From Paraburkholderia sabiae (lineage in GTDB: Bacteria > Pseudomonadota > Gammaproteobacteria > Burkholderiales > Burkholderiaceae), in assembly GCF_030412785.1 (NCBI RefSeq), contig NZ_CP125295.1:5642001-5706000 (forward strand): 64,000 nt of DNA, in the 5' to 3' direction. Made by a program: the position numbers and the translations under genes. Below, piece by piece: positions 29,865 to 47,964 of the stretch (position 1 is the stretch's first letter; each line of letters starts with the position of its first letter). The notes beneath the pieces were generated by a model, which ran no database searches, had not been told where the DNA came from, and saw only the letters and a program-made list of their open reading frames with translations.

Positions 29865-29870
29865 AGGCGT

Positions 29871-31415: not shown

Positions 31416-31659
31416 CGGCCCTCCGGGCAAAAAGCCTGAAGGTACCGGGTTGTGGAAATTCGAAATGCGTTTCGGGCTGCCGCCCGACAGAACACTGAGC
31501 CCGCTACGTGGCTCGATTACGCCGATCCTGCGGTGGCTCTAATACGCCGATCATCGAGTGGCCCGATTGCGCCGATCATGCACTGGCTCGATTGCGGCGA
31601 TCATCCGGTGGCTCGATTACGCCGATCCCGGAATGGCTCGAATATGCCGGTCAGTGACA

Positions 31660-32340: not shown

Positions 32341-32426
32341 CTTGCGTCCTGCGCCTCGATCGGCGTGATATCCGAATGATGGATGCCGCTTTCATCGCAT
32401 ATACGCACGATTGGCTCAAGCAATGT

Positions 32427-33761
32427 TCAGGCAGTGTCATCCGTCGACTTCTGCCAGAATGTCACGCCCCACTGGCTGCCTTCAATGACTGGCATGGTTT
32501 CTCCTGCCGAGAAGTATCTGCGACTCCCGGCCTTGGCTGGTGTATGCCACCAGCCGGCTTCAGGACACGGTTCTCCACCCATGATGCTCCGGGTGCCGTC
32601 GCTCGATGCGGCAACCGCGGGTACGACGGCCGGCGCAGAGGAAAGTGGCGCTGCGTCCGGAAGATCAAAGCGCGCCTCCCAGACGCGCGTCGCTTTAGCG
32701 TTGGCGCTTGGTAGGTCGGGTACGTAAGTATGCAGCGCATCCGGGGCCGGGTTGCGAAGAACCCGTATGACGCTATTCACGAACACATACGGTTCGGGCA
32801 AGCCTTCCTCAGGCGCGCCGAGTCGTGGAAATTCACCTGCACGGATCAGCAGGCATTGTCCGATCCGTTCGACGGCAATATCCGAACGCGCCAATAACGT
32901 CCTCAAGATACGCTCTCCTCCCATCCGGTCAATGAAAAGCTCTCCAAGGAGGGTGTACCAGTTCACGCCTTTGATATAGCCATATCGGCCAACTTTTGCA
33001 CCAGGCTTCAGATAATCATAGAAGGCATCCATTTTGGACATCGACTCGCCTTCATATGAAACCGGATCGTATTCCTGGCTTTGTGAAAAGGCGTAACTGT
33101 CGATCTCAAGACCGCTAAAACGCTGGGCAAGGGTCCATTCCTGAGGCAAATACTGATGGAAACTGAACGGAAGAATCGGCGACAAGCCGCCGTAGCCGCC
33201 GCGCACAGGCAATTGTGCGCACACGAAGCGCAGCATCTCTTCGTATTGCGCCAGCCCGTGCGCTGCCGCAACCAGATCCATTGGCACATGGAACTTGAGA
33301 TACGACAGCCCGGATTCCTGCCCCTTGGCTATGCGCATGCCAGTGGGAGAAACATAGTCCTCGGGCAACGCAGTCGCGGTTAACGTGGCAATTGCATATT
33401 CGGCCGCAGTGTCCTGATCGGTTGCGCTTGAGCGCACGACGCTTACTTCCTGCCACGGTGGCGTTTCGGTGATTGCCCGGCGGATTGACTCGACGCCTTT
33501 GGCTGTACGCTTGTTGAATTTGCCAAGGTCCGAGTCTTTGCCGCCTTTCAAATGCTCGCCAAAGAGATGTTCGAATCGATCGAAACACGCGAGGATGCCA
33601 CTGCGAACGGCAGGTGTCGATCCGCGCTCGAAAAAAACCGTCGCGATCAGACCCGGCAATACCACCGTGCGATCGTCCGATAAGCGGAGGTTAAGTGCAT
33701 CCCGGTAACGTGCCAGCGCCTGTGCGGGAGTCAAAATGGCCTTTGAAGTCGAAGAGGTCAT
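32427..33761 (-). CDS. Type VI immunity family protein (DUF3396-like)
   Basis: 444 aa from the ATG at 33761; a TTG two codons upstream is an alternative. Family features of DUF3396 are PGLIATVFFERGSTPAVR, the central SYLKFHVPMDLVAA, MLRFVCAQLPVRGGYGGLS and RFSGLEIDSYAFSQSQEYD, with GVNWYTLLGELFIDRMGG later. The C-terminal about 50 residues hold a GEPCPEAGWWHTPAKAGSRR...GETMP module also found in the neighbouring disrupted gene. Proteins of this family are known beside type VI nuclease effectors, and the gene directly follows such an effector. It probably neutralises that nuclease in the cytoplasm. Confidence 0.8.
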   Translation of the reverse strand: MTSSTSKAILTPAQALARYRDALNLRLSDDRTVVLPGLIATVFFERGSTPAVRSGILACFDRFEHLFGEHLKGGKDSDLGKFNKRTAKGVESIRRAITETPPWQEVSVVRSSATDQDTAAEYAIATLTATALPEDYVSPTGMRIAKGQESGLSYLKFHVPMDLVAAAHGLAQYEEMLRFVCAQLPVRGGYGGLSPILPFSFHQYLPQEWTLAQRFSGLEIDSYAFSQSQEYDPVSYEGESMSKMDAFYDYLKPGAKVGRYGYIKGVNWYTLLGELFIDRMGGERILRTLLARSDIAVERIGQCLLIRAGEFPRLGAPEEGLPEPYVFVNSVIRVLRNPAPDALHTYVPDLPSANAKATRVWEARFDLPDAAPLSSAPAVVPAVAASSDGTRSIMGGEPCPEAGWWHTPAKAGSRRYFSAGETMPVIEGSQWGVTFWQKSTDDTA

Positions 33762-33812
33762 GGTCAAACGTGCAAATTCGTTTCAACGCGATCATCGAGG
33801 ATCGTCCCAGAT

Positions 33813-35063
33813 TCAACCCTGTGTCGCAACGGCAGCCGCGCCAACTGCCAAAGCGAGCGCCGCGGCTCCAGCCGCACTTGCAGTCGACACGATCGCCACG
33901 AGCGCCGCCAGGATCGCGACAAGTGCCTCAGCTAACACGAACGCTATTGCCACTGCGGCGACTATCACGACTACGACAGCAACGCCTTTGGCAAGCGTGA
34001 TACCCACTTGTCCCCAGTCGATCTGCCTGAGCATTTCCCAGGTCATGTCAGTCCTGCGTACAAGCTCCTGCCAGCCGGTTTTCAGTTGCTGCGCCGTATA
34101 ACGGGCAATGGCGTTGCCCTGCTCGTCGACCCACGTCCAGACCGCACCAGCCTGATCTGCGATCCATCGGCCGGCAGCAAACATCCACGGCGCTTCCTTG
34201 TGCAACCATGCTTTCGTCTCCTCGCACAACGCGCTCGCACCTTGCTTGGCGCTATCCCACATCGCCGCTACGGCACTCTCGACATCACGCACTGTGCTGG
34301 CATCGGGAATCCAGTCTTCGTACCATGCAGGTTGCGCGATCGGTTGCTGCGTGCGTACGGGAGCGCGAAGCCGTTGAGCAGATGCGGATTGGGCCGGTTG
34401 TGATGCAGGTGAGCCAGCGAGTGCACGTTGCCGTGCCGTCTCGAGATCTCCGTCGCAATCGGAAACGTCGAGCACGCACATCCGTTGCCTGCTACCCGCT
34501 ATCTGCTGGTAGGCATTCTCCTGTCCCATGCCCCAACTGTCGCCAGGAAACTTGATTTCGACGAGACGCAGGAGATTGTCGGTGTGTGGAGCACCGTCAA
34601 GATCCACCGGTCCACGGCCTGGCCAGCGATCTCCGGGGTTCTTCGCAATGATGACATCGGGTCGTCGCAGGAACCCCGCCTTCACCCCACGGGGAAATGG
34701 ATTCAGACTGTGTCTGCGACCCGGGCCCTGCGATTTGTCGCTGGCCAGAATAGGAATGGGCGCGTCTAGACCCCGGGTAGCAATCGAGGGCGTCATATCA
34801 AAACTGACTTCAGCCTTATACATCCAGAGGAAATCTGCCGCGTATTCATCCCGGCGAATGACCATCGACACGACCACCTGCTTGAGCAGATTGGTTGTCG
34901 TCGATCCGTCTGGCAGACGAATCGTCACGATTCGCGGCGCCTTCAACGCATATCTCACCTTTTCCGCGAGATAGCCCTCGGAATTCGGAGGCAATCTGGC
35001 GTATTCCGGCCGTTCCTCAAGGATCGTGCATGTGGAACCGGCTGGCTCAAGCGTGGCGCCCAT
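33813..35063 (-). CDS. Putative type VI secretion nuclease effector, PD-(D/E)XK / VRR-NUC-like
   Basis: 416 aa. The N-terminal half has a PD-(D/E)XK nuclease pattern: FLRRPDVIIAKNPGD (D136) and, about 32 residues later, LLRLVEIKFPGDSW (E169, K171), then GQENAYQQIAG. This arrangement is that of VRR-NUC-like domains. Residues 260-345 are helical and Trp-rich, and 356-412 form one or two long hydrophobic segments at the C-terminus. It starts 21 bp after vgrG with a GCGAGAG ribosome-binding site, so it is the VgrG cargo, with its immunity gene next. No PAAR or Rhs domain is present. The toxin role is inferred from motifs and context. Confidence 0.78.
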   Translation of the reverse strand: MGATLEPAGSTCTILEERPEYARLPPNSEGYLAEKVRYALKAPRIVTIRLPDGSTTTNLLKQVVVSMVIRRDEYAADFLWMYKAEVSFDMTPSIATRGLDAPIPILASDKSQGPGRRHSLNPFPRGVKAGFLRRPDVIIAKNPGDRWPGRGPVDLDGAPHTDNLLRLVEIKFPGDSWGMGQENAYQQIAGSRQRMCVLDVSDCDGDLETARQRALAGSPASQPAQSASAQRLRAPVRTQQPIAQPAWYEDWIPDASTVRDVESAVAAMWDSAKQGASALCEETKAWLHKEAPWMFAAGRWIADQAGAVWTWVDEQGNAIARYTAQQLKTGWQELVRRTDMTWEMLRQIDWGQVGITLAKGVAVVVVIVAAVAIAFVLAEALVAILAALVAIVSTASAAGAAALALAVGAAAVATQG

Positions 35064-35084
35064 GAATAAACTCTCGCTTTTTGA

Positions 35085-37853
35085 TCAGGTTGCAGCTGGT
35101 TCGTCGTCGATGAAATCAGCAGGGATCGACCCGCTGCCCCCACCGGCGAGCTGCCAGGGTTGCGTCGCCCGTTTTGTCGCCTTCAGGGCCTGCAGGTGGA
35201 CGTCTTCGGCGTTTCGCGTAAAGACAGGTAGTGTCTCGCCTCGACCGTTTGTGAATCCCGGTAGCTGGAGCCCAGATGCAGTGGTCAGTTGATACGGATG
35301 CCTGATGAGAGGCGTACCATCGACTTCACTCTGCAAGACGTATTGCGCACGATAGCCTGGCTTGAACGTCGGGAGTGGGTACTGTTGTTCTGTGGGGCCC
35401 GCGAACGAATGCCGCGCACCCTTGAAGTCGATCTTGCCGGGCGCATGCATCTCGATGTTGCCGTCGCAAATGCGTATATACGCGCCGCCCGAAGTCAGCA
35501 GCACATCCTGTTTCGCGGCAGCCTCGATCCGGTCCGTGGCTGAGATCAGCTTCAGGGTCTTCTGCGCAGTGACTTCGAGGTTATCCGACTGCGCCTGCAC
35601 TTCCACCTTGCCCTTCGCCGCAAACAGCTTCATGCCCGCGTTCTGCACGAACAGGCTGATCTTCTCGCCCACGCTTGCAATCAGCGATTTGCCCGCAGCG
35701 ATATGTGTGCTCTGTCCGCTCACCAGATTGGTGTGTTGTGTCGATGCGAGATGCGCCGACTGCTGCGTCGAGATCGCGAGTCCCGCAGGCGTCGCGAACA
35801 GCATGATAGGTTCCTTGAACGCGTTCGCGTTGCCCGTCCCACCGCCTGCCGTGTTACCGCCGCTGCCGCTTGCACCCGTTACGCTGTTCTGCGTCGCGTC
35901 GCTGAACGCCTTGAGCGCATCCGTGCCGTCTGTCAACGGCTCAGCCTGATGCGTCCCGCTTGCCGTCGACATCGCGTCAATCACACTATGCGAATTCTCG
36001 AGTTGCGTGCGTGCCGCGCTCACATCGAGCGGCTGGCTTGCCGCGCCGTTCGCAGGATGGGTCGATATATACAGCCCTTGCGACGCGCGCACCGCGCCAT
36101 ACGCATCCGAATTCAGATCGAAGCCGCTGCCCAGATACGCGCCACGCGAGTTGCCGTTCTGCGCAACCAGATAGCCCAGATGCAGGAACGAGTTCGCGTT
36201 GCTGCTATAAAGCTGCACACGGTTCTGACCCGTCGCATCGTCCATCACCATCTGGTTGTAGCCGCTGCCCTGGTACTCTTTCGAGCGGTAGCCCGAGAGA
36301 ATGCCATTCGAGTGCCATTGCGGCGTCTTCGCGCCGTTGTATGCGCGCCCTGTCACGACGGGCCGGTCGCAATCGCCGTCGAGCCAGTTGACGATCACTT
36401 CCTCGCCGACACGCGGTACGTGCACGCTGCCGTAGCCGCCGCCCGTATCGGACATCGCCACGCGCACCCAGCACGACGCATTCTCGTCGCCCTGATTCAG
36501 CCGATCCCAATGGAAGCGCACCTTGATGCGATTGAGTTCGTCGGTATAGACCTCTTCGTTTGCAGGTCCGACGACGGTGGCCGTCTGCAAATGCATCTCC
36601 GGCTTGCGATGCTCGAACGGGCTGCGATACGGAATCATCTTGCGCTGCGCCTCGACGCGCACCAGGAAGAATCCTTCGCTGCCGTCGCTGCTGCCGTTCA
36701 CTGCCTCCGATTGCACGCCGTGCTCTGCGCGCGCCCCCGCAACGACGCCGTTCAGGCTATGCGGGAAATCCGTCGTGCCCGCCGAAACGGGCAGGTTGTT
36801 CCCGATCACCCATTCGACGGCGATCACCGCAAATTGCCGCTCCTGCGCGCCACCCGCGTTGTGCTCCGGATGATTCGCGAGTTCGAACCAGCGGCCCGCG
36901 TCGACGCCGCGCACCGAGCCCACGCCGTCGAAACGCCGCGCGCGCGATTCCCACTCTTCCATGCGCACTTTCGACAGATGATCGCCGCGGTCCTGTGCGC
37001 CATATGTGTAAGCGCCCGTGTACTCGTACACTTCGGCCTGTGCGGGCAAATCGCCTTGCGTGGTCATCGTCGGCACCGAAGTGCCCTTTGGATTGGCCAC
37101 ACTTGCGGGTGACTTGTAGTCGAAGGTGCGCGTGGTCAGCGTCGTGCTTTGCAGCGTGCGTGTGCCGCTCCATTGCACGAACGCATCCATCTCGCTGTTC
37201 GTTCCCGCGCGGTAGAAGTCCACCGTCTGCGGATTCATCGGTTTGAGCGCACCGATATCGTCGGTGATGACGAGCGTATGCGATTTGCCGTCGTCGGCCT
37301 GCTCGATATAGCTAAAGAGCCCCTCGGCTTCCATCAGCCGATGACAGAAATTCCAGTCGCTTTCGTATTGCACGCAGAACGAGCGCTGGGCGAGCGGTTG
37401 GTTCAATGCAAAGCGGAATGCGCCCTGCGCGTGCGGATGTGCGTTGAATACGTCGGTGAGAATCGCGTCGGCAGTTTTATCCTGCCAGATGCGCGCGTCC
37501 TTTCTGAAGCGCAGGAAATGCAGCCACGACGTAAAACCGATCTGATAGCCGGTGATCGCGCTGTCGGAACCGAGACGCCGCGCGGTATGCACATAACCGT
37601 GATGCGGCCGATAAGTGCGGTCGAATTGCTGGATCCACAACGTAACGGGCTGCGCAATCAGCGATTTGAGTTCGATACCGTCGCGCGACGATACGACGTC
37701 GACGGTAAAGGCGCTGTCGCGGCCTAACGCCGCACGTCCTAGCGCGCGCTGCGGTAGCAGGACATTGGCGCCCAGCGGCGTGTCCAGCTTGAGTAGCCGG
37801 TCGGTCTGCGTCAATCCGCCCGTCATCGCCCCGATTATGTCCTGCGCCCTCAT
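35085..37853 (-). CDS. vgrG: Type VI secretion system tip protein VgrG
   Basis: 922 aa. The start chosen is the ATG at 37853, which has AAGAGG 7 bp upstream; 10 more codons upstream are open. The gp27-like part contains QRSFCVQYESDWNFCHRLMEAEG and the gp5 OB-fold region GPANEEVYTDELNRIKVRFHW and CWVRVAMSDTGGGYGSVHVPRVGEEV. After YRSKEYQGSGYNQMVMDD comes the DUF2345 beta-prism (AAGKSLIASVGEKISLF) and a short tail without a toxin domain. VgrG trimerises at the tip of the contractile needle and carries the adjacent effector. No other type VI structural genes lie in the window, so this is an orphan vgrG cassette. Confidence 0.96.
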   Translation of the reverse strand: MRAQDIIGAMTGGLTQTDRLLKLDTPLGANVLLPQRALGRAALGRDSAFTVDVVSSRDGIELKSLIAQPVTLWIQQFDRTYRPHHGYVHTARRLGSDSAITGYQIGFTSWLHFLRFRKDARIWQDKTADAILTDVFNAHPHAQGAFRFALNQPLAQRSFCVQYESDWNFCHRLMEAEGLFSYIEQADDGKSHTLVITDDIGALKPMNPQTVDFYRAGTNSEMDAFVQWSGTRTLQSTTLTTRTFDYKSPASVANPKGTSVPTMTTQGDLPAQAEVYEYTGAYTYGAQDRGDHLSKVRMEEWESRARRFDGVGSVRGVDAGRWFELANHPEHNAGGAQERQFAVIAVEWVIGNNLPVSAGTTDFPHSLNGVVAGARAEHGVQSEAVNGSSDGSEGFFLVRVEAQRKMIPYRSPFEHRKPEMHLQTATVVGPANEEVYTDELNRIKVRFHWDRLNQGDENASCWVRVAMSDTGGGYGSVHVPRVGEEVIVNWLDGDCDRPVVTGRAYNGAKTPQWHSNGILSGYRSKEYQGSGYNQMVMDDATGQNRVQLYSSNANSFLHLGYLVAQNGNSRGAYLGSGFDLNSDAYGAVRASQGLYISTHPANGAASQPLDVSAARTQLENSHSVIDAMSTASGTHQAEPLTDGTDALKAFSDATQNSVTGASGSGGNTAGGGTGNANAFKEPIMLFATPAGLAISTQQSAHLASTQHTNLVSGQSTHIAAGKSLIASVGEKISLFVQNAGMKLFAAKGKVEVQAQSDNLEVTAQKTLKLISATDRIEAAAKQDVLLTSGGAYIRICDGNIEMHAPGKIDFKGARHSFAGPTEQQYPLPTFKPGYRAQYVLQSEVDGTPLIRHPYQLTTASGLQLPGFTNGRGETLPVFTRNAEDVHLQALKATKRATQPWQLAGGGSGSIPADFIDDEPAAT

Positions 37854-37896
37854 ACCGCCTCTTTTTAATCCGATTGTGCCCACGCGCTACCGCGCG

Positions 37897-37926: not shown

Positions 37927-39206
37927 TTGCATTTTAAAGACAATGTGAAACGATGCGTAATGGGAGTTTTACGTAAATGCAACTCGAATATTAAAAAATG
38001 GTGAAATCGAGATTTGACAATTTTTTGTGAGACGCAAATGCGCGGGATGCCGTAGTCGATCGAGCGCCTTTCCATGGACTGCCCATATAGTTGCCGTCGG
38101 CTTGCCTCGCAAAAGCAACTACGCAAAGCGCTATCTAGTTTTTCTCTCAACAGCGACCCGGTATTGCGAAATCCGTCGCCGCACGTGCTGCTCAAAAAGC
38201 CAAAGGCCTCTCTCTCAAGGTTTAGCCGCATCATCTCCGTTCTACGTGCCGTTTGATAGCGGGCGTTTGCATTGAAATCGAGACCGATTGGCGGTGAAGC
38301 AACCCCTCATTTACTCGCGAGTCAAAACCGTTTGTGCCGACGCCACTGCCTTCGGAAGCGTTGGCGTCCGTAGTCTGCAGCCGGCCGGATGGCCGTTCTG
38401 ATGCGAGCCTGAGCATCGGCTGCTCGAAGATGCCTGCCAACGCAGAAGACTGCCACGTTGGCTGACTCTTGGCAGGTATGTCGCCCTTTCAACAACGGTA
38501 TTACCGTCGCCCCCGCACCCGACGGGTCTCGGCCAGCCCAACGCACCGGACGTAGCGACTTGCGCCCGATTTGCACAAAGCGATAAAAATTTTTGGAGGT
38601 GTCGCACATTGCCGCTTGACTCGCGACCACGATCATGTTTATGATTCATCCGTCTGAAGTATTAAGCTTTCCCCTGGCCCGAGGTTACGGGAGTAGCACC
38701 GTGCTTTACGCACAACTCCAATGAAAAATGATGTACCTTGAGTTTTGGTACGTTATGAATTGCAGCATGAAGCCTTAAGGTTCGGTGGCAGCTATTACCA
38801 CCGTTGGAATGCATTAATGCACAGTACGTGACGACCTCAGCCATGAGTCTCACGGGATTTGAGCAATGCAGTCCGCCATGCGCCTGCTGGCGCCCTCCGA
38901 AGACCCCTCATCAATCAGTACATCAAGTGAACGGTTGTTTCCGCGACGCGGAGCAGCCTCTTCTCTTCTCATGCTGCGATGCTTCGCATCGCGGCATTCT
39001 GCAAGCCCCTCGACGCAGCTATGCGTTAGAGATCGCCTGAACGGGCGCGCCTCAAGCCATTGAGCGCGTCCTCGCATTCCGCGAGGCGAAAATCTGCGGG
39101 CTCCACTCCCAATTGGCGTGACTGCAACAATTCCCTCCCCGAGGGACCCCATCTTAACGGTTTCCGCCCATGAATCCGCAAGCGTCGCGCGCACACCGCC
39201 CTGCCC
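37927..39206. other. Long gene-poor region between vgrG and the recombinase, with one strong promoter-like site
   Basis: About 1.3 kb in which no open frame has good composition or a ribosome-binding site. A good plus-strand promoter shape, TTGACT (38616-38621), 18 bp, TATGAT (38640-38645), points to the right and has no clear gene behind it for 800 bp. It could drive a small RNA or a long leader for the recombinase operon. The 5' part (37927-38030) is AT-rich. Confidence 0.4.
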
Positions 39207-39464
39207 CTGGGCGGCTCGTTGCATCGACGCACCTGACATCCGCACTGGCATCGCATCGCGCCGCCTAGGGGCCGGCGCACCCGTCTCAGAGACGCTTCTC
39301 TGACTAACTAAATCTTTTTAGGAGTACAAATCTGCACGCCCTGGCGGCTCCTTGCATCGACGCACCTGATATCCGAACTGGCACCGCGTCGCGCCTCCTA
39401 GCGGCCGGTGCACTCGTCTCAGAGACACGCTCTGATTACCTAAACGTTTTTAGGAGTAGAAATC
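39207..39464. repeat. Tandem direct repeat of about 130 bp ending at the recombinase start codon
   Basis: Two diverged copies, about 39207-39338 and 39340-39464, share GCGGCTC(G/C)TTGCATCGACGC, ACCTGA(C/T)ATCCG, GTCTCAGAGAC (a short palindrome) and the ribosome-binding tract TTTTTAGGAGTA(C/G)AAATC. Copy 2 runs straight into the ATG of the recombinase; in copy 1 the same position reads CTG and no frame follows. The pattern suggests duplication of a promoter/leader, or loss of a gene by recombination between repeats. Confidence 0.8.
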
Positions 39465-40484
39465 ATGGGTCAAAAATCGCGCCTTTCCCACGCATCGCGC
39501 AACTACACGCACTTCAGAGGCGGCGCCGCACAAACGATGCAGAATCGTCTGCGACTGATTGAAGCGTTGTGGGCCTTTATCGCGTTGCTCGGCATCAAGC
39601 TCAATCACATCCGTGATACGCCCCTGTGGTTGATCATGCTTTTTGTGCAAACCCGGCTGTGTGAGGGTATCCGGCCAGGGCATGCACGCAACATGACGTC
39701 GGCTATTCGGGTCATTCTGGACGAAGCGGGCTGCTCAATGGTCAACACCACGTGCTCCAACGATGCCCTTGGGGTGCCGCGCCGAGATCGTAAAGGGGCC
39801 CATCGCGCGCAGACGCGCGCGGAATTCGAGCAGACCATTATCCGCGCACAGGCTGTCGATGAGGGACTCGCCCACCACCTGAGCCTGATGTACATCCTCG
39901 GACTGCGCTCTGTCGAGGCGCTGCGCAGCGCACACGAACTCGCAGGCTGGCTTGGATTGCTTCGCGCAGGTGCGGACCGCTTGCCGTTTCAATACGGTGC
40001 AAAGACAAACCGCCTGCGTCAGATCGAGATCATCCCGGGCGCGGGGGAGGAAACTGTCCGGATCATTGAAGCAGCATTGGCGTATTGCGAGACACACAAC
40101 GGCAATCTGATCACCGGTGTGGATGCTGATCTGCGGACGTCGCGCGACCGGCTCCGCTACCTGCTCAAGGCGGCCCGAATTTGCGGACAGCTCTCGTCTC
40201 ATTCCTTGCGCTACTCCTATTCGGTCAACCTCGCGCTTGGGCTTCTCGATGGCGGAGTCAGCGAAGAGGAAACGCTCGACCGTGTTTCCGCTGCGCTTGG
40301 ACATGGCGCGCGCGCACAGATGATCCTCAACACCTACCTGCAGGAGATCCGGGACCGTTTTGCAACCGTCGTGATCCCCCGGCGTCCCTCGCGCAACCCA
40401 GGCGGCAGTGTTCGCGGCCGCCATCTGCCTGGGCCGCAAAGGATGATCCGTTCGAATCGGCGGCTCAAGTTCAAGAAGGCTTAA
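39465..40484 (+). CDS. Tyrosine recombinase / integrase-domain protein
   Basis: 339 aa, starting after a strong AGGAG. The N-terminal about 110 residues are a helical core-binding region; the catalytic domain has the full active-site set: R148 in LGLRSVEAL, K180 in YGAKTNRLR, H246 and R249 in SHSLRYSYS, H280 in LGHGARAQM and the nucleophile Y291 in ILNTYLQ. It resembles the integrase_1-type proteins found on plasmids and islands rather than XerC/D. It heads a plus-strand run of four genes with similar ribosome-binding sites and probably moves, or resolves, the island. Confidence 0.85.
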   Translation: MGQKSRLSHASRNYTHFRGGAAQTMQNRLRLIEALWAFIALLGIKLNHIRDTPLWLIMLFVQTRLCEGIRPGHARNMTSAIRVILDEAGCSMVNTTCSNDALGVPRRDRKGAHRAQTRAEFEQTIIRAQAVDEGLAHHLSLMYILGLRSVEALRSAHELAGWLGLLRAGADRLPFQYGAKTNRLRQIEIIPGAGEETVRIIEAALAYCETHNGNLITGVDADLRTSRDRLRYLLKAARICGQLSSHSLRYSYSVNLALGLLDGGVSEEETLDRVSAALGHGARAQMILNTYLQEIRDRFATVVIPRRPSRNPGGSVRGRHLPGPQRMIRSNRRLKFKKA

Positions 40485-40578
40485 AGCAAACACTCCTGGC
40501 GGACCCGCTAATAGCTCGCGCCCGCCAGGGCCACCCAATGAAACCCCACTTGCCAGCTATTTTAATCAGGAGATTGAA

Positions 40579-41034
40579 ATGACCGAAATCCATGCTGCTG
40601 TCGCCAACGACTGGCTTCAAGACAGGGCACGCGAGGTAGCCGAAGCTGAAGGATGGGATGAGACCGCACAGCGCATTCTCATTCCGAAATGGCAATTCTT
40701 TACCTCCTACGTCCTGACGTACGGAGAAATACCGGGATCCTTGAGCGACATCCGAGCGGAAACGCTCACTGCTTTCTCCCGGCACTGCGACCTCGACGGT
40801 GGGGTCCCCTTCGCGGAAGCTCCCCTCATGCTCGCCGCCGTCCGCCTTGTCCTGCTGCGTAGCGGCTACGACACGGAGGTGCTCGCAGCATTGAGCGCCC
40901 CGCGCCGCCGAAAGCGTGTAAGAAACAAAGGCAAAACGTATCGTCACGAGATCACGCGCCCGGACGACCCGGCGTGTGCGAAAGCGGCGGCCAGCAGTCC
41001 CGGCACGTCGCAGGCAGACGCGGAAGTGTTCTGA
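40579..41034 (+). CDS. Hypothetical protein downstream of the recombinase, possibly core-binding-domain-like
   Basis: 151 aa with AGGAG before the ATG. A helical first part, ILIPKWQFFTSYVLTYGEIP then LSDIRAETLTAFSRHCD, is loosely like the SAM-like arm-/core-binding domains of tyrosine recombinases; the tail from about 105 is basic (RRRKRVRNKGKTYRHE) and then disordered. No catalytic residues. It might bind DNA or assist the recombinase. I do not recognise a named family. Confidence 0.65.
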   Translation: MTEIHAAVANDWLQDRAREVAEAEGWDETAQRILIPKWQFFTSYVLTYGEIPGSLSDIRAETLTAFSRHCDLDGGVPFAEAPLMLAAVRLVLLRSGYDTEVLAALSAPRRRKRVRNKGKTYRHEITRPDDPACAKAAASSPGTSQADAEVF

Positions 41035-41161
41035 CGTGATCGTCACGGGCTACTGCATCCGCAACGGCTCCCGGGCCGCTGTGCAGTAGCCTGCCATCCC
41101 CTTCCGACATAACCAATGCTTGCGTTTTCTTAACCACTCAAGTTCACGATAAGGACTACAA

Positions 41162-41914
41162 ATGCATTCGATTACTATACTTGCCCGCACCTCGAACTCC
41201 CTCACTCAAACTGGCATCGCGGAGATGATGCATGGCTATCGTGCCGCAAGTTTCAGGCGTCTCGAAGCGGGTGTGCACGATCAGTCTGGCGAAATGGATA
41301 CGCTTGCCCGCTCGCAGGACGAGACGGGGGAGTCCTATTGCGCTCTCATGGCCAGTCCGAATGGGGGACTGCTGGATGTTTCGCCGGACAGGCACCCGGA
41401 TCTGACGACGTTCCTCGAAGAACGTAAGGACACGCTTCTCGAACTCGCCTCCCTCGTCGTGATTGTTTCGCCGGACGGAGAGGCACAGGGTCGCGCCATC
41501 GCGCTGCTGGACGCAATCGTGCCGTTCAGCCTGGAGCCCGGCCAGTGCAGCCTGCTTCTTGTCGACTGCCCGCGCAATATGCCCCCCGAGTCTGCGTTCG
41601 GCGAGATTCACGCGTACCTGCGCGACAAACCGCTCGACGGACTGATCGTTCCCGCTGTGATGCCCGCATCGCGCGCCTTCGAAGAAGCACAGGTTCACAA
41701 GCTTTCGGTCAGCGCGCTCGTCAATGCCACCGACATCGAAGGCGAATTTCGTGCGGCACGTGAAAAAGGCGCAGGGGAAAAAAAACTTCAGAATCTCGGG
41801 CGCCGTCTGATGGCAGCACGCGCTGTCGTTGCCGCTGCACGTGAGTTTGAGCGCGTCTACGACGCACTCGGACTGCCGCGCACGAAGCGCATCGTAGACG
41901 CGAGTGCATCTTAA
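41162..41914 (+). CDS. Hypothetical protein of the recombinase operon, ParA-like without Walker A
   Basis: 250 aa with AAGGA 7 bp upstream of the ATG. The middle has alternating strands and helices: LELASLVVIVSPDGEAQGRA, CSLLLVDCPRNMPPES and PLDGLIVPAVMPASRAF recall the switch and base-binding strands of the ParA/MinD fold, but no P-loop is present. The tail AREKGAGEKKLQNLGRRLMA is a long basic helix. It lies between the recombinase accessory gene and a ParA/StbB-like ATPase and may partner with the latter. Fold assignment is a guess from pattern. Confidence 0.6.
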   Translation: MHSITILARTSNSLTQTGIAEMMHGYRAASFRRLEAGVHDQSGEMDTLARSQDETGESYCALMASPNGGLLDVSPDRHPDLTTFLEERKDTLLELASLVVIVSPDGEAQGRAIALLDAIVPFSLEPGQCSLLLVDCPRNMPPESAFGEIHAYLRDKPLDGLIVPAVMPASRAFEEAQVHKLSVSALVNATDIEGEFRAAREKGAGEKKLQNLGRRLMAARAVVAAAREFERVYDALGLPRTKRIVDASAS

Positions 41915-42223
41915 CTACCTGCCGATAATCCCTGAACGCCCACCGTCATGCGCTTTCGACTAGCCCGCGCTGATGCCTGCCCAGTAGCGAGCGTCTCGCC
42001 CGCCGCACCTCCGAGAGCTAATGCGGGCGGGAGGGTTGTCGCGCAGATGAAAGACAGTTTCGGCGCCGGTCGCTTCTTCAGACGGGCTATCCGTGCCTAT
42101 CTGTGGACGCACGTCATCAGACGATGTGATGCGCTTTCGCGCGCAACGCATGATGGTTGAAGCCGCTTCTAGCAGACACACGTACCCAAATCTCCGGGGC
42201 CCATGCCAGCAAAGGACAGACTA

Positions 42224-43066
42224 ATGAAAATCGAAACACGTGCAGTTACAGAAAACAAGCACCAAAGCCTGCCGGATTTGAAACAGACCCGTTCATCCGA
42301 TGCTCCAGATGGCACCCGATCACTCTTGGTACGCTTCGACTCTGGCTCCGGAAAAAGCGCTGTTGCTTCGATGGTGCTCCATCAGTTCTGCCCGGGCACG
42401 ATATATTCAGTACATGATCCAATCGTCAATCGTGGCACGGGCGCTTTTGGCGTACCAGCGGTGCATGTGAGTCCGGACATGCTGGCGTCGCTTGCTGTCA
42501 CACTCCAACAGGATCCTGGTCATCTTCTCGTCGACGTCAGCACGTGTAGCGTCGTGGTCTTTATCGACTTCATTAGTCGCAACCCCGGCGTCCTTTCCCG
42601 GTTTGACCTTGTCGTGATCCCCGTCAAACCGCAATACCACTACGAGCGCTCAGCGATCGACACGGCGACATGGCTCCTTCGTCAGCAAGTAAATCCACAG
42701 ATCATCCGCTTCGTGTTCAATCATCTCCTCGACGAGGATTGCGGCCGCATTGCCGCGCTTAAGCGTGACGCCGATCGATCAAAGCTGTTCCCGTTGATGA
42801 CGCAGTTCCTGAACGAAACGCCCGCGCTTGGTCAACAGACGCACGATTGCCGTTTGCCAGAAACGTTCATGTTCGATTTGTGCTACCTCGGTGACGCGAT
42901 GGACACCATGACGTCAACGTCGGCAGGACCCCACCATAAGCATTACCGACTGATCAGCGGCGAATCGGAAGTGGAACATCGCGAGCACTTTGCCCGGTTG
43001 GCGTACAGGGCGCTGGTTAGTGGACTTCCGCGGGAACACGCTTTTGCGGCTGCACGTTCGACCTGA
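42224..43066 (+). CDS. P-loop ATPase of ParA/StbB type
   Basis: 280 aa from the ATG at 42224, which has AAAGGA 8 bp upstream; an ATG at 42203 adds seven residues. The P-loop is RFDSGSGKSAVASMVL (about 37-52), a deviant Walker A (one Gly short of KGGxGKT and without the signature lysine). HLLVDVSTCSVVVFIDF provides the Walker A'-like aspartate, and FDLVVIPVKPQYHYERSAID the later strand. This is the pattern of plasmid-stability StbB proteins. It closes the plus-strand operon; the following genes are convergent. Confidence 0.7.
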   Translation: MKIETRAVTENKHQSLPDLKQTRSSDAPDGTRSLLVRFDSGSGKSAVASMVLHQFCPGTIYSVHDPIVNRGTGAFGVPAVHVSPDMLASLAVTLQQDPGHLLVDVSTCSVVVFIDFISRNPGVLSRFDLVVIPVKPQYHYERSAIDTATWLLRQQVNPQIIRFVFNHLLDEDCGRIAALKRDADRSKLFPLMTQFLNETPALGQQTHDCRLPETFMFDLCYLGDAMDTMTSTSAGPHHKHYRLISGESEVEHREHFARLAYRALVSGLPREHAFAAARST

Positions 43067-43199
43067 TTAACGCAAGCCCATTTAAGCAGGCCTCAGGTCG
43101 CGCGTGACATCCGCGTAAGCTATGGCTGCGCGTCGCAGCTTGTGTACGGACATCCGGGGGCAAGCAGAAAAGCGATGCGCAGCAAGCTAGAGTCTGGCC

Positions 43200-44126
43200 T
43201 CAGGTTCCGCGAAGTGCCTCGCGAACGTCTTCGAGACAAATGGTCGCACTTCCATCGGACCGTTCGCGACGCGCTGCCGCATCAATGATTCGCTGCAGTA
43301 CCGCGTCGACTTCCGCAATGGTGCTGAGACACTCTCCCTGAATTGCCGTCACTGCATACTGGATCAGGTAACGCGAAACACACAATGCGTTTGATCCAGC
43401 CATCACCCGCAGTTGTACGCGTATATAAGAACCGAGGCTGTCAGGATCGGATAGCGCCATTCCGGCGGGTAACACCTGTGCGGGATCATTCGCGGCATCA
43501 CCATGGCGCGCGAGCGGGAACGTCATGTGGGTGATGGCTGCAATATCCAACGTCCGTGCTTTGACTTCCAGGGCGACGACAGGCTTTTCCAGTACGGCCG
43601 TAGAATTCGGAGCATACGTAACCGGGACGGTATCTCCTGCCGGCTCCCTTTCATCTCCCGGGATTATTGGAGTTTGACTCGTAGTTTCCGACAATTCGAC
43701 GCGTGGCGACGAATCCTCCTCACATCCGCCATACCGGTGGACCAATCCGGACCGCGCAATCTGCACACAGGAGCCTGAACGCTTCATGGCGATCTCCATT
43801 ACCACCGCCGAGATCAGAACGAAAATAGACGCCAGAGACAGCCCATCGAATGGCAGTATCGTGTGCACGACAGCAATAGCTAGCGACGCCCGACCGACCC
43901 AGCGGCACAATCCCCAGCGACGAAAGGCGCTTCGTAGCAATAGCGCGACCGTTGCTCCGAGCAGAAGAAAGACGCCCCTTTCGCTCGAAGTCAAAACCCT
44001 CCCCGCCATGACATCGAACACGAATCTCTGCACCCAGTCGACAAATAGCATGGCGCCCAAAACCTGAGAGCAAATCAGGTCAACCGACAGAAAACGCCTC
44101 GACCACTTTCCAGCTTCCGATTTCAT
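43200..44126 (-). CDS. Membrane protein of unknown function in the AAA+ gene set
   Basis: 308 aa. About four helices in the first 115 residues (for example LICSQVLGAMLFVDWVQRF, GVFLLLGATVALLL and LASIFVLISAVVMEIAM) are followed by a charged, probably disordered linker and a soluble C-terminal domain of about 110 residues (LPAGMALSDPDSLGSYIRVQ, then VDAVLQRIIDAAARRERSDG). No known family comes to mind. It is the last gene of the minus-strand run that starts with the membrane AAA+ ATPase, so it is likely a partner, but gaps of 80-520 bp separate the genes. Confidence 0.6.
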   Translation of the reverse strand: MKSEAGKWSRRFLSVDLICSQVLGAMLFVDWVQRFVFDVMAGRVLTSSERGVFLLLGATVALLLRSAFRRWGLCRWVGRASLAIAVVHTILPFDGLSLASIFVLISAVVMEIAMKRSGSCVQIARSGLVHRYGGCEEDSSPRVELSETTSQTPIIPGDEREPAGDTVPVTYAPNSTAVLEKPVVALEVKARTLDIAAITHMTFPLARHGDAANDPAQVLPAGMALSDPDSLGSYIRVQLRVMAGSNALCVSRYLIQYAVTAIQGECLSTIAEVDAVLQRIIDAAARRERSDGSATICLEDVREALRGT

Positions 44127-44642
44127 AACATTATCCTTGGTTTAACTAATTATTCGCGCCACCTTGTGATGACCGCAAAGACAGTGTCAGGCCCAACTTC
44201 GCTGACGCAAGGCGCTGGATTCCGGACGCCTGGACCTGCAAGTGAAAACCGAACGGGTCTGTATGAGGGGACGGGAGCTGCGAGTAACGGATGAGCAAGC
44301 TGGCGCCGGATCGCGGCCAGAAGGCTTGGTAAGGACGCTGGCCGGCTGGACAGAGGGACTGCACGCCGCTATCGGATCACGACACATCCAGCCAATTTAC
44401 CCAGATGGCCGCCAACGGCCGCACATACAAATCTGATCCACGTCCCTCGGTGAGCCCGGGGGACAGGCGGCTCTACCTATCGTGATCAGGCGGCGGTGAC
44501 GATCGTGTGCAAGAACGGATGCAAGGTGACAACACAATGCGTGTGTCATGCAGCGGAATCCTGTTCATGTTGCCAGCACCTTTGCACCTCGCCCGTTCGA
44601 GGGTGGCCGCCCGCTTAAGACACGGAATTGATGCAATGGAAA
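44127..44642. other. Intergenic region with no supported gene
   Basis: 516 bp between the two membrane-protein genes. Short open frames exist on both strands, but none has a ribosome-binding site or plausible composition. A promoter for the 43200 gene is expected here; I could not pick one with confidence. Confidence 0.4.
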
Positions 44643-44921
44643 TCACCGGGCGTCCGGGGGTCGCCGCTTGTACCTGCTATCCGATTGCTGTACGGCCCGC
44701 AACGCGGAAAGCGAGGCGACGATCATGAAGCCCGCCACAACCGTCAACTTCGTGTCGGACCACTGACCAAACCAGGATTCAAGAATCGAATCGATTCCCG
44801 CATCCCGCCAGAACATCGCTAACGTGACGATGAACGTGGCAAGCGCAAGCAGAACCAGAGCGATGGCGCGCACAAAGCGCATGATGCAGTTGATGTCGTC
44901 GTTATCACGCGAAGGCAGCAT
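44643..44921 (-). CDS. Small two-helix membrane protein
   Basis: 92 aa. Two transmembrane segments, RAIALVLLALATFIVTLAMF and LTVVAGFMIVASLSALRAV, are separated by a short acidic loop (WRDAGIDSILESWFGQWSD), and a basic tail follows. AAGG lies 9 bp before the ATG at 44921; an internal ATG at 44882 is possible. It is 89 bp downstream of the AAA+ gene on the same strand. Unknown function; it could be an adaptor or a pore-like partner. Confidence 0.55.
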   Translation of the reverse strand: MLPSRDNDDINCIMRFVRAIALVLLALATFIVTLAMFWRDAGIDSILESWFGQWSDTKLTVVAGFMIVASLSALRAVQQSDSRYKRRPPDAR

Positions 44922-45010
44922 TAGGAATCGCCTTAAGGATCAGGAAGTACATGTGTCTGGTGTGCGCCTGATATCGGGGGCGCGGTCGGTGCATACGCTG
45001 CCCAATGCGC

Positions 45011-46996
45011 CTACTGCTGAAAAGTTCTGGCGGTGAAAACGCTTGCAGCCGCCGACTCGACGTCCGATGCACGGATTTCGTTGACACTCTCGCGAAGCGC
45101 ACGTACGGCAGCCGCATCAACCGTTTTTTGCAGAACGGCGTTGGCGTCGGCAATCGACTTTCCGACGAGGAGCTCACTAAGACGCATCCGGGTTCCTGGC
45201 ATGATCACATAGGTACCACCCGCCAGCCTCTTGAGCTGCGCACTGGCGTACTGCACCATCTCGTTCTCATCCGGGACATCAAACATGATCGTTTCCTCAA
45301 AGCGGCCACCCCTCAGGGCAGCCGGATCAATGTCGTTCAGGTAGTTGGTCGTAAGGATGTACACAATGTCTCGCACCCGCCCTTCTGCGCCGTCCAGTGT
45401 CGTCAGGATCTTGTTGGTCAGCGCAGAGACGTTAGAATGCGTCCGGGAACGCAGGATTACGTCCCCCTCATCAACGAGCGCGATCGTCGGTCTGATCTCG
45501 CGGGCCTGGCGCACCAGCGCGTCCCACGACTCAGGTCTTGCGATGATCTGTTCGCCTGTCGTTGACAGGAATGCGTAGCCGCTTTCCCTGGCCAGTGACA
45601 TCGCTGCCTGGGTCTTGCCAGTGCCTGGCGGTCCCGCAAACACGAGGCCCGTCGGAACACGGCCACCAATCCTCTCGAGGCTGTGCACGTTCTTCATCCG
45701 GAAGGCGAGATCGCGCAGCATATCGCGCGAACGCCCGGGCATAATGATCTCGTCGATCGGTTTGACATCCTCCGGCAGTTTGCCTTTACGTCCTTGCAGG
45801 AGGCGCATGGCCTTCATCGCTGCGTCGTACGTGATCCGCCCTCGGGCCAATGATCCGTTGGCGCGCATATCTCTGAGCTGCGCGCCCAGCGCATCCAGGC
45901 GGCTCGCATTGAATCCCTCCCAACGCTGCGCAAGGGTCGTGAGCGTCTCGGCGTCAATGTAGTCTTGACCAAGCTCACGGCAGATGCTCCGGGCAAGGAG
46001 TGCTTTGCGCGCGGCAAAATCGGGAGGCGGCACCTCAATCTTGTAATCGAAACGCCCTTCACGGATTGCGGCCCTGTCGAGGCTGTCATCAATGAAATTG
46101 CTCGCCGCGACCAGTACGACCGACGTTCCACGCAACGCGACTATCTCGGTCAGCATCACGTTGGCAAGATCGTGGTCCATCGAGTGTGAGCGCCCAGAAC
46201 TCCGGTCTTTCACGAACGAGTCCAACTCATCAATAAAAAGCAGAATCGGAGACTCACAACGTGCCAGATCAAACACAGCTTTAACTCTCTGGGGCGTATC
46301 GTTTATCCAGCGCGATGCGATATCCCCATAGGCAATCGAAATGTATCTGAGGCCAAGCTCTCCCGCGAGCGCTTCGGCAAACAATGTTTTTCCGTTGCCG
46401 GGGTCGCCAAAGAACAGTATTCCATTGCGGGGCGGGCGCCTCGACTGTCCCGATACCTTCCTGTCGGGCTGATCCTGAAGCGAGAGGATTTCCTTTGCTG
46501 CAGCGAGCACGCGATTCTTCGTGTCAGTCATCCCAACGATGTCGGCGAATCCGTACCTCGCACGGCTTACCAGGTGACTGTAGTCATAGTCCGGCTGCGA
46601 AGAATCTGCAGGAGCGTGCGGTTGCTGTAAGTCGGTCCGCGCAGGGTGCGTTTGCATCTGCCCGGGCAGCCGGGTCTGACGCTTACGCTCAAACTCCATC
46701 AGCAGCAACCCCGTGTACCAGATGACAACGGCGTATAAGCTGTACACGTTGAATGCAAGAAGCAGGCGTAACATGCCAACGCTCAGCACCCCAAAGGCGA
46801 CCCGCGTCCAGATCCGCCGCCTTGCGTTCACCCAGACAATGCCGCACGCTGCGGCAACAGTACAGATCATGAATTTGAAGCCGTGCGCGCCGACCAGACG
46901 ATAGTGCCCGGACAAGGAGGCAAGCAGCATCACCCCCCAGTAGAGCGGCAGACCCAGGCAAAAAGATCTTAACGAAAATACGACGAATTCGAGCAT
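45011..46996 (-). CDS. Membrane-anchored tandem AAA+ ATPase
   Basis: 661 aa. Three or four helices in the first 105 residues anchor it in the inner membrane; after a disordered linker come two AAA+ modules. Module 1: Walker A GDPGNGKT (197-204), Walker B LLFIDELD (252-259), sensor-1 Asn (N300) and arginine finger REGRFD. Module 2: Walker A GPPGTGKT (455-462), Walker B IALVDEGD (505-512) and RGGRF. Both look catalytically competent; each is of the FtsH/Cdc48 (classical clade) type. There is no protease domain, unlike FtsH. Together with two small membrane genes it forms a minus-strand set. The substrate and role are unknown. Confidence 0.88.
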   Translation of the reverse strand: MLEFVVFSLRSFCLGLPLYWGVMLLASLSGHYRLVGAHGFKFMICTVAAACGIVWVNARRRIWTRVAFGVLSVGMLRLLLAFNVYSLYAVVIWYTGLLLMEFERKRQTRLPGQMQTHPARTDLQQPHAPADSSQPDYDYSHLVSRARYGFADIVGMTDTKNRVLAAAKEILSLQDQPDRKVSGQSRRPPRNGILFFGDPGNGKTLFAEALAGELGLRYISIAYGDIASRWINDTPQRVKAVFDLARCESPILLFIDELDSFVKDRSSGRSHSMDHDLANVMLTEIVALRGTSVVLVAASNFIDDSLDRAAIREGRFDYKIEVPPPDFAARKALLARSICRELGQDYIDAETLTTLAQRWEGFNASRLDALGAQLRDMRANGSLARGRITYDAAMKAMRLLQGRKGKLPEDVKPIDEIIMPGRSRDMLRDLAFRMKNVHSLERIGGRVPTGLVFAGPPGTGKTQAAMSLARESGYAFLSTTGEQIIARPESWDALVRQAREIRPTIALVDEGDVILRSRTHSNVSALTNKILTTLDGAEGRVRDIVYILTTNYLNDIDPAALRGGRFEETIMFDVPDENEMVQYASAQLKRLAGGTYVIMPGTRMRLSELLVGKSIADANAVLQKTVDAAAVRALRESVNEIRASDVESAAASVFTARTFQQ

Positions 46997-47444
46997 ATCC
47001 TCTCTCCAACTTTTGTTTCGGATACCGATCTACGCTTAGCCGAGCGCCCGGAATCCTCATTCCGATTGTCGATCGCACTGTCGTGTACGCAAGTCCCTGG
47101 CGCTTTTACCGGTCCTGAGTGCTATTGGCAGAAGGCATCGCCGAACGCGCGTTGGCCTGGCTACGCGAGATCAAGCGAAGATCCACAATCGCACGCAGCT
47201 GTACCAACAGGATGTCTGCGTGTCAGAGCGATGGGACAAAATCCAATCGAGTGGTGGTCGCCCACCGCCGCACGATGCGATCTGAATGTTTGGGAGCAGA
47301 GAATGCATGTTGCGACGCATGCCCGCGGACACCGCCCCCCCTTGCCGGCGCTGCGAGAGAGTCGTCAACTGCCCCCCGCGAAACGCACCATGGCTCGCAG
47401 CCCCAGACCATGCGTCGCGCGTGTTGCCGATTTCCCGAAGCAAC
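46997..47444. other. Intergenic region with no supported gene
   Basis: 448 bp upstream of the AAA+ gene. It should hold that gene's promoter. Open frames are low-quality shadows. A GAGAGGATATG start context is visible for the AAA+ gene at 46996-47003 on the minus strand. Confidence 0.4.
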
Positions 47445-47741
47445 CTAGCGAAAGCAGACACTTCGCCGGACTGCCCCGCGTCGGACCCGCGGCTCGCGCA
47501 CAGGCTCGTGACGCCGTATGTGCACGCGCCCATGTCTGCGTCTCACCTCTTCCCGAATAGCCAGACGTGCTTCGAGGCGCTTCCATGCGAGCGGCCGAGC
47601 GATGCGGTCACGTATGCGGCGCCTGAACTTCTCAAGCACCGCGAATGGAACATCGGCCGGAACCACGAGCTCCGCTCGTCCTTTGCTCAGGCTCACGACT
47701 TCCCTCTGGTTGGCGCCAAAGACGAATCGACGGATTTTCAT
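47445..47741 (-). CDS. Possible small arginine-rich protein
   Basis: 98 aa from the ATG at 47741, with AAAGGA 7 bp upstream. The first half, KIRRFVFGANQREVVSLSKG and PADVPFAVLEKFRRRIRDR, looks like a genuine folded protein; the last 35 residues are a monotonous Arg/Val/His run that may be out of frame with the original. It could be a frameshifted or truncated gene. Unknown function. Confidence 0.4.
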   Translation of the reverse strand: MKIRRFVFGANQREVVSLSKGRAELVVPADVPFAVLEKFRRRIRDRIARPLAWKRLEARLAIREEVRRRHGRVHIRRHEPVREPRVRRGAVRRSVCFR

Positions 47742-47964
47742 TTGCATCCTTTAGTGAGTAAGTATTGGGAGCCGCCATATACAGCATCACAAGGCAATAC
47801 CGCCTGACGTACGTTCACTACGGACTCCCGGATTCAAGCTTCGCATGGAACGCCGCACATGCAAGCCGCCGATCCGCCGCCAGTCCGTCGGAAATGTCGT
47901 CCTGTTGACTAGATGTTGCATGCTGACTCAAGCTGTTCGATCCGATCGGCTGCGAGAATTCTGG

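What the first reader, a model, noticed from the sequence alone, without database searches (positions are those of the whole stretch)
39207..46996. Uncharacterised island: recombinase and ParA-like operon facing a membrane tandem-AAA+ gene set
Four plus-strand genes with near-identical ribosome-binding style (recombinase with all six catalytic residues, a core-binding-like protein, a Walker-A-less ParA-like protein and a deviant P-loop ParA/StbB ATPase) converge with three minus-strand genes (membrane tandem AAA+, a two-helix protein, a four-helix protein). None match a known plasmid backbone, phage, conjugative element or defence system that I recognise. The layout could be a mobile unit with its own stability module and a membrane remodelling or defence cargo. 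This is the best candidate for an undescribed system here.
Basis: partly seen in the sequence, partly recalled or inferred. Interest (0 to 1): 0.8.

Follow-up and report, generated by a model that had tools for sequence, protein, structure and literature searches.

The report
Plasmid-kin island with membrane double AAA+
A stretch of a bacterium's chromosome carries a maintained gene set, made of a DNA recombinase, proteins related to a plasmid-positioning ATPase and a membrane-anchored double-ring protein-unfolding motor, whose distant relatives are encoded within the DNA-transfer machines of large plasmids; the set appears to be undescribed.

Summary
The island is real and larger than reported (about 38811-47747): a folded leader, recombinase, stand-alone core-binding protein and two StbB-like proteins, facing an anchor-plus-lid protein, a two-helix protein, a membrane tandem AAA+ (tAAA) and a missed Arg-rich small protein. 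Genome G815 carries the set, except parA2, in the same order beside the same chemoreceptor gene (38-72% protein identity; dN/dS 0.10-0.36 for five genes), so it is maintained. rec-coreB-parA1 faces tAAA or a tAAA-derived lid gene in 21 genomes found. Best reading: a mobile, plasmid-related module whose AAA+ is a membrane-anchored Cdc48/p97-like unfoldase, tied to a T4SS in relatives and standing alone here. Substrate and role are inferred. No defence family fits. Novel points: a T4SS-embedded Cdc48-like ATPase, ATPase-less lid paralogues under purifying selection, and a folded leader before the recombinase. Without seed genomes, rec and tAAA co-occur only weakly at genome level (p 0.008, or 0.10 with a looser cut-off); the case rests on synteny.

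The parts
38811..39464 (+). folded non-coding leader upstream of rec, with a tandem duplication (39205-39332 and 39339-39464)
   Evidence: window 38811-39274 is 76.5% identical to G815; fold z -4.83 over 654 nt, 20 shuffles; 38811-39209 z -5.22 against 36 controls, mean -0.58, sd 1.43; duplication 86% over 128 bp; no Rfam match up to E 1
39465..40484 (+). rec: tyrosine recombinase, 339 aa
   Evidence: Pfam Integrase_1 and Phage_int_SAM_2; catalytic positions invariant in 8 aligned sequences; dN/dS 0.11
40579..41034 (+). coreB: stand-alone homologue of the recombinase core-binding (SAM-like) domain, 151 aa
   Evidence: profile-profile match to residues 31-109 of rec, probability 92.5
41162..41914 (+). 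parA1: StbB-like protein that has lost the Walker A loop, 250 aa
   Evidence: profile match of its family to StbB-type proteins, probability 99.1; P-loop absent in all 7 rows
42203..43066 (+). parA2: StbB-like protein with a GKS loop, 287 aa (true start may be 42224)
   Evidence: NCBIfam StbB 5.9e-7, below cut-off; 24% to the megaplasmid StbB-type protein, E 1.5e-9; no match in the G815 stretch at 1e-4
43200..44126 (-). mem308: membrane anchor plus AAA lid, without ATPase cores, 308 aa
   Evidence: C-terminus matches tAAA lids, residues 10-116 match the anchor of the G408 tAAA at 1e-10; full-length homologues in P. phymatum and G815
44643..44921 (-). mem92: two-transmembrane small protein, 92 aa
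   Evidence: 51% in G815; family also in L010, L014, L024, L029
45011..46996 (-). tAAA: four-helix membrane anchor plus two AAA+ modules, 661 aa
   Evidence: AF2 mean pLDDT 86.7, helices 2-28, 37-56, 61-80, 85-109; Foldseek best Cdc48, NVL, p97, Drg1 at about 1e-29, TM-scores only 0.35-0.49 over the query; Walker A glycines and lysine of both modules invariant in 42 rows; dN/dS 0.10
   Evidence: family in 17 of 23 tAAA loci; 54% in G815

Best explanation
The island is a mobile, now chromosomally maintained module related to conjugative-megaplasmid backbones of Burkholderiales. One arm is a site-specific recombination and DNA-positioning operon: a folded leader, a tyrosine recombinase, a stand-alone core-binding protein (perhaps an accessory DNA binder that tunes the recombinase) and StbB-like proteins, one without its ATP loop. 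The other arm is a membrane-anchored Cdc48/p97-like double-ring ATPase with small partners. In distant relatives this ATPase is encoded inside a T4SS operon, so the most likely function of the family is an inner-membrane protein remodeller or segregase that pulls on membrane or T4SS subunits; the stand-alone clade keeps both ATPase modules but is apart from a T4SS. mem308 and the lid-only genes are paralogues that kept the lid (mem308 also the anchor) and lost both ATPase cores, plausibly as regulators or caps. Shown: gene content, synteny, purifying selection, fold class, T4SS embedding of homologues. Inferred: descent from plasmid to chromosome, substrate, role of mem308, role of the leader.
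For: Set without parA2 in G815 with same order, orientation and neighbour, dN/dS 0.10-0.36 for five genes. rec-coreB-parA1 faces a lid-only gene in 16 of 19 lid-only loci; of the 13 reached only through the lid profile, 11. rec and coreB lie near tAAA in 7 genomes, convergent in 5. tAAA inside a T4SS cluster in 8 of 11 plasmid loci viewed, of 13 records matched, and in genome loci L107, L112, L123, L124. StbB-type genes at E<=1e-40 occur in 10 genomes, all among the 25 tAAA genomes of 398; 8 of 8 without the two seed genomes, p 3.5e-11, a cut-off chosen after seeing the list; at E<=1e-39, 9 of 10, the tenth being G375. Four tAAA contigs also hold a virB4 and a StbB-type gene. 35 stand-alone rows form one clan, 100/100. 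R388 StbB is needed for conjugation when StbA is present and for polar plasmid location.
Against: No T4SS gene of the kinds tested lies in the window. The tree does not separate T4SS and other rows cleanly: the label needs 6 changes, the root is arbitrary, long branches meet, and one row labelled stand-alone, L134, is a near-copy of the T4SS-linked L033. 13 of 25 tAAA genomes have no virB4 match at 1e-60. Genome-level co-occurrence of rec with tAAA without the seed genomes is 3 of 8 (p 0.008) at E<=1e-80 and 3 of 20 (p 0.10) at E<=1e-30. parA2 is not found in G815. No direct repeat of 11 bp or more was found in the end stretches tested, one chance-like 12-mer apart, and none bounding the island in a self-comparison.
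Confidence: 0.5

Rival explanations
1. Anti-phage or anti-plasmid defence island: the membrane AAA+ complex, with small partners, senses invasion and damages or blocks the membrane, carried by a recombinase unit.
For: Patchy distribution (25 of 398 family genomes), location in variable chromosomal spots, a T6SS effector-immunity cluster nearby; IetA and TRIP13 models hit the AAA modules.
Against: Those hits are to AAA modules only; no protease, nuclease, cyclase or HORMA-type partner is recognised in the island; distant homologues lie in T4SS operons.
Confidence: 0.15
2. Domesticated chromosomal locus: the recombinase acts locally (inversion or copy-number switching) in a region with a manC-like gene (perhaps exopolysaccharide, a guess) and a chemoreceptor, and the AAA+ serves surface assembly.
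For: 13 of 23 loci compared share chromosomal flanks with the window (its 10.6-16.8 kb genes, the manC-like gene or the chemoreceptor); purifying selection.
Against: The exact position differs between genomes; direct repeats flank the unit in 4 of 14 loci scanned; no long inverted repeats around the set; tAAA relatives lie on plasmids.
Confidence: 0.15
3. Decaying relic of an integrated conjugative plasmid with no present function.
For: Lid-only genes look like reduced tAAA; stand-alone loci lack the T4SS genes tested; fragments of tAAA and of the small gene occur in L012.
Against: dN/dS 0.10-0.36 for five window genes, 0.15-0.36 for lid-domain pairs, invariant Walker A glycines and lysines.
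Confidence: 0.1

Closest known systems
stbABC operon of plasmid R388 (StbB, deviant Walker A ATPase)
   Same: StbB-like proteins; an StbB-type gene with neighbours and an integrase lies on a T4SS-bearing megaplasmid
   Different: The window has two StbB-like genes, one lacking the P-loop, no StbA or StbC homologue recognised, and a recombinase plus its core-binding double in the same direction
Cdc48/p97/NVL/Drg1 tandem AAA+ ATPases
   Same: Two AAA modules, sequence match up to 6e-88, Foldseek about 1e-29
   Different: N-terminal four-helix membrane anchor instead of the p97-type N domain (recalled); TM-scores over the whole query only 0.35-0.49; bacterial plasmid or island setting
Conjugative T4SS (MobH-TraD-DUF4400-VirB set with type IVb pilus genes) of Burkholderiales and one Rhodocyclales megaplasmid
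   Same: Distant tAAA homologues are encoded in it, between genes that I take by order as VirB6- and VirB8-like
   Different: The window copy has no T4SS genes around it and belongs to a separate stand-alone clan
Tyrosine-recombinase integrative elements with Pfam Integrase_1 + Phage_int_SAM_2
   Same: Same two Pfam domains and catalytic residues
   Different: No relaxase or T4SS gene recognised in the unit; companion core-binding-only protein and folded leader

Membership tests
StbB (NCBIfam NF041292) | curated score cut-off 200 bits | tested here: not met
   parA1 21.1 bits, parA2 29.1 bits
StbB-like superfamily | profile homology over most of the length | tested here: met
   parA1 family against the StbB-type proteins of L012, L014 and L023, probability 99.1 over 240 columns; one search is not independent because the two sets share rows
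StbB-like superfamily | deviant Walker A loop | tested here: inconclusive
   GSGKS present in parA2; loop absent in parA1 and its 6 aligned relatives
stbABC operon | stbA upstream, oriT nearby | tested here: inconclusive
   not recognised in the window; a gene in the StbA position, h161, exists on the B. contaminans plasmid and in L014; oriT was not searched for
Active tyrosine recombinase | R-K-H-R-H-Y catalytic set (recalled) | tested here: met
   R148, K180, H246, R249, H280, Y291 invariant in 8 sequences
Integrative element | attachment repeats and empty site | tested here: inconclusive
   window 23510-49068 absent in G398 with 27 bp between the flanks, but this stretch holds other cargo too; no att repeat found for the window island; related units have 206-1467 bp flanking direct repeats in 4 of 14 loci scanned
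RIT elements (three recombinases in tandem; recalled) | three catalytic recombinases | tested here: not met
   only rec has a recognised catalytic domain; coreB matches the core-binding part only
Cdc48-type tandem AAA+ | two AAA modules with conserved Walker motifs | tested here: met
Cdc48 (TIGR01243) | curated cut-off 802.65 bits | tested here: not met
   193.5 bits
T4SS component (window copy) | encoded within a T4SS operon | tested here: not met
   T4SS reference proteins from three plasmids, tAAA itself aside, kept no place in the window at 1e-4
IetAS defence | IetA-level score and an IetS protease partner (partner recalled) | tested here: not met
   NCBIfam IteA_antiphage 118 bits against cut-off 510; no protease among the island proteins scanned, 8 by Pfam and 7 by the other libraries
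TRIP13/HORMA signalling | HORMA partner (recalled) | tested here: not met
   no HORMA match among the island proteins scanned

The most novel reading that the evidence does not exclude
A Cdc48-type, membrane-anchored double-ring segregase is a genuine component of a lineage of conjugative type IV secretion systems, and has been split off with a P-loop-less StbB, a recombinase under a folded leader and ATPase-less anchor/lid regulators to form a free-standing membrane-remodelling system of its own kind.
Probability: 0.35. Interest if true: 0.8.

Novelty: new variant of a known kind. Interest (0 to 1): 0.6.

Why it matters
The known energy sources of conjugative T4SSs are, from recall, VirB4, VirB11 and the coupling protein; a p97-like unfoldase encoded inside the operon would add a new activity (extraction or recycling of membrane subunits) to DNA transfer. 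The linked StbB-like proteins suggest a tie between DNA positioning and a membrane machine. Lid-only paralogues under purifying selection give a natural test of what an AAA lid does alone.

Tried and rejected
Defence reading: PADLOC hits fall only on tAAA. Phage origin: 30 phage records match tAAA at 1e-10, none over 80% of it; of the 20 listed, names where given are mostly FtsH-like. rec on plasmids: two Salmonella records at 29%, E limit 1e-20; parA2 on plasmids: none at 1e-6; P0122 (mem308 homologue) on plasmids: none at 1e-4. Attachment repeats: none of 14 bp in the end stretches tested; one 12-mer (24278 / 48244) judged chance. Rfam: no match up to E 1. Leader: by shuffling alone the result is uneven; of 15 stretches tested L007 +0.59, L174 -0.80, L138b -0.82 and L018 -1.12 are unremarkable, and one of 36 controls reached -4.76. 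In the pair count one of five measures, further pair types, is weak (39 against 36.0, 43 of 500 shuffles as high), and RNAalifold's own covariation term is about zero (+0.5); the structure was fitted to the same related rows. So the leader fold is supported, not settled, and RNA is not told from folded DNA. mem308 AF2 model (2 sequences) is poor, pLDDT 49, and is not used. coreB and parA1 were not modelled. PDB search with A3: two weak hits, not pursued. Literature: six searches showed no paper on this AAA+ or set in their listings: 19 papers, 12 listed; none; 1; 10; 754, 10 listed, none of those with the AAA+ name; 2. Only PMC3098194 was opened, abstract and passages. That nothing is in print is claimed only within those listings.

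Rows dropped: L125 from the rec alignment because the stretch I named held a stop; 19 near-copies, and frames under 480 residues such as L027, from the tree. A cut-off of E<=1e-40 was first paired with 11 genomes; G051 (2.1e-40) does not meet it, so the count was redone.
Full report
OBSERVATION. The seven ORFs lie where stated. Pfam recognises only rec and tAAA. Corrections: mem308 carries the AAA lid of tAAA at its C-terminus, and its residues 10-116 match the anchor of the G408 tAAA at 1e-10; a further conserved gene lies at 47445-47747; a folded non-coding leader lies upstream of rec. The RBS resemblance holds for three of the four plus genes.

SETTING. The window is G000:C1:5642001-5706000 of a 9.9 Mb genome. 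In G398, window 23509 and 49069 are 27 bp apart, so 25.6 kb between a manC-like gene and a chemoreceptor gene is extra here; that the right-hand gene is a chemoreceptor is my reading of its sequence. The left part of the insertion is a separate cargo: IS21-type genes, and VgrG, VRR-NUC and TsiV genes. In G408 a different tAAA (38% identity) lies beside the same chemoreceptor gene.

CO-OCCURRENCE. G815 (locus L169) holds rec 72%, coreB 58%, parA1 61%, mem308 38%, mem92 51%, tAAA 68% and sm 54% in the same order and orientation beside the same chemoreceptor gene; about 6 kb of other DNA stands between parA1 and mem308, and parA2 was not found. dN/dS between the two genomes is 0.10-0.36 for the five genes measured. 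A shorter relative, rec-coreB-parA1 facing a stand-alone lid gene, occurs in 16 of 19 lid-only loci: L093-L097, L171-L177 and L179-L182; L132, L178 and L183 lack rec in the stretch held (in G020, L183, rec lies 13 kb away). L093-L097 were reached through rec, so the unbiased figure is 11 of the 13 loci reached only through the lid profile (L171-L183). L170 has a partial mem308-like gene without rec. Seven genomes have rec and coreB near tAAA: G000, G815, P. solitsugae (L007, L008), P. madseniana (L018/L185, G406), G048, G072 and G401; convergent in all but G048 and G072, where they point the same way. Together, 21 genomes have rec-coreB-parA1 facing a lid gene or tAAA: 16 plus G000, G815, P. 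solitsugae, G406 and G401, taking P. solitsugae as none of the unnamed ones. In L014, L023 and L028 a different integrase and an StbB-type gene (in L028 a fragment) lie near tAAA.

GENOME SCAN. tAAA (E<=1e-100) in 25 of 398 family genomes; rec in 22 at 1e-30, 10 at 1e-80; both in 5. Without the seed genomes G000 and G048 the overlap is 3 of 8 at 1e-80 (p 0.008) and 3 of 20 at 1e-30 (p 0.10). The link of rec to tAAA therefore rests on synteny more than on genome counts.

LID PARALOGUES. In pairs of six stand-alone lid genes dN/dS is 0.15-0.36 in the lid and 0.37-1.57 in the N-terminal part. Start codon and RBS (CAGGAGAG) are conserved in all six. Full-length mem308 homologues: P. phymatum P0122, 42% in the alignment, and G815. 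G384, G290 and G379 carry the lid gene yet are not among the 25 tAAA genomes, so the lid protein does not need a tAAA in the same genome.

PLASMID AND T4SS KINSHIP. Thirteen PLSDB records hold a tAAA relative at 1e-50. I viewed 11; not H3, nor H10, which has the same size, place and score as H9. In 8 of the 11 (H5-H9, H11-H13) it lies in a T4SS cluster, downstream of a gene that I take by order as VirB6-like (annotated 'type IV secretion system protein', in H12 'hypothetical') with up to two small genes between; in seven a VirB8-like gene, VirB9 and VirB10 follow, in H9 they do not. The other three viewed, closer to the window (H1, H2, H4), are not embedded; H4 has no annotation, and T4SS references found nothing there. 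On the B. contaminans 391 kb plasmid (H2) an integrase 73% identical to that of L014 diverges from an StbB-type gene 67% identical to that of L014, 10-40 kb from pilus, T4SS, TraD, TraI-domain and Rep genes, while tAAA lies elsewhere on the plasmid; MOB-suite calls this plasmid non-mobilizable. StbB-like genes (A3, E<=1e-6) occur in 63 of 398 genomes, 15 of the 25 with tAAA, p 1.9e-7. At E<=1e-40 there are 10 genomes, all within the 25; 8 of 8 without seed genomes G000 and G251 (p 3.5e-11). The profile was seeded from tAAA loci and the cut-off chosen after seeing the list; at 1e-39 one of 10 (G375) has no tAAA. In G393, G326, G382 and G062 tAAA, an StbB-type gene and virB4 share a contig. virB4 of this type was found at 1e-60 in 12 of 25 tAAA genomes.

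TREE. 49 rows; 35 stand-alone rows form one clan (100/100), with the window, L128 and L028 together (99/95). T4SS rows lie outside, mixed with L114, L134, L135, L136 and L137; L134 is a near-copy of the T4SS-linked L033, and around L135-L137 the T4SS references found nothing in 14-19 kb except a pilus ATPase in L146. The root is a midpoint and several branches are long, so the direction of descent is inferred.

MOBILITY. In L171, L181, L177 and L172 direct repeats of 717, 428, 206 and 1467 bp flank the rec-lid unit; in L171 both copies correspond to window 12258-12973, single here. In L185 shorter repeats (291 and 161 bp) flank tAAA instead. The other nine of 14 loci scanned show no such flanking pair; L132 has no rec and L175 is cut by a contig end.

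LEADER. In 14 relatives about 430 nt before rec align at 75% mean identity; the predicted fold has 14 pairs with changes on both sides against 5.5 +/- 1.7 in shuffles (0 of 500 as high) and 2-4 when slid, but further pair types are only 39 against 36.0 (43 of 500) and RNAalifold's covariation term is +0.5. The window and G815 leader has no blastn match to the L094-type leaders compared but is itself strongly folded.

MECHANISM. tAAA is modelled with four membrane helices and two AAA modules, nearest to Cdc48, NVL, p97 and Drg1 (TM-scores over the query 0.35-0.49). With Walker A glycines and lysines invariant in 42 rows, an ATP-driven protein remodeller at the inner membrane is the most likely biochemical role; T4SS embedding suggests T4SS or membrane subunits as substrates. 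R388 StbB promotes conjugation and polar plasmid position, which fits a DNA-positioning partner. Substrate, partner contacts and the regulator role of mem308 are inference.

VERDICT. A real, maintained set with plasmid kinship, for which my searches found no description; not a recognised defence system; function plausible but unproven.

Noticed in passing
window 31651-37883: T6SS cargo: VgrG, a VRR-NUC domain protein and a TsiV-type immunity protein, with an Imm71/Imm72 protein beside them at 31651-32340.
   Followed up: no
window 29076-31430: IS21-type helper ATPase and transposase-like genes.
   Followed up: no
window 12258-12973: Single here, but present on both sides of the rec-lid unit in L171 (717 bp, 86%); parts of it likewise in L181 and L177.
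   Followed up: partly
L094 15652-16689 and relatives: A gene that looks like a ParM-type segregation gene (my reading, no family search) recurs near lid or tAAA loci: L094-L097, L179, L180, L182; weaker in L025, L034, L115, L119, L120, L128.
   Followed up: partly
L130 7833-9785: G408 carries a divergent tAAA (38%) beside the same chemoreceptor gene, and a lid gene about 95 kb away.
   Followed up: partly
L095 3479-4288, L094 12409-14045: Several similar short membrane-type reading frames repeated in a row.
   Followed up: no
L141 16618-17556; L033 14172-15251: An IscB gene within, and a TnpB gene just after, tAAA-bearing plasmid clusters.
   Followed up: no
G000:C4:226179-228557: The window's own genome has a VirB4-like gene (30%) on another contig.
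   Followed up: no
L170 16603-17484: A VirB11-type ATPase match (39%) about 7 kb from a partial mem308-like gene in G773.
   Followed up: no
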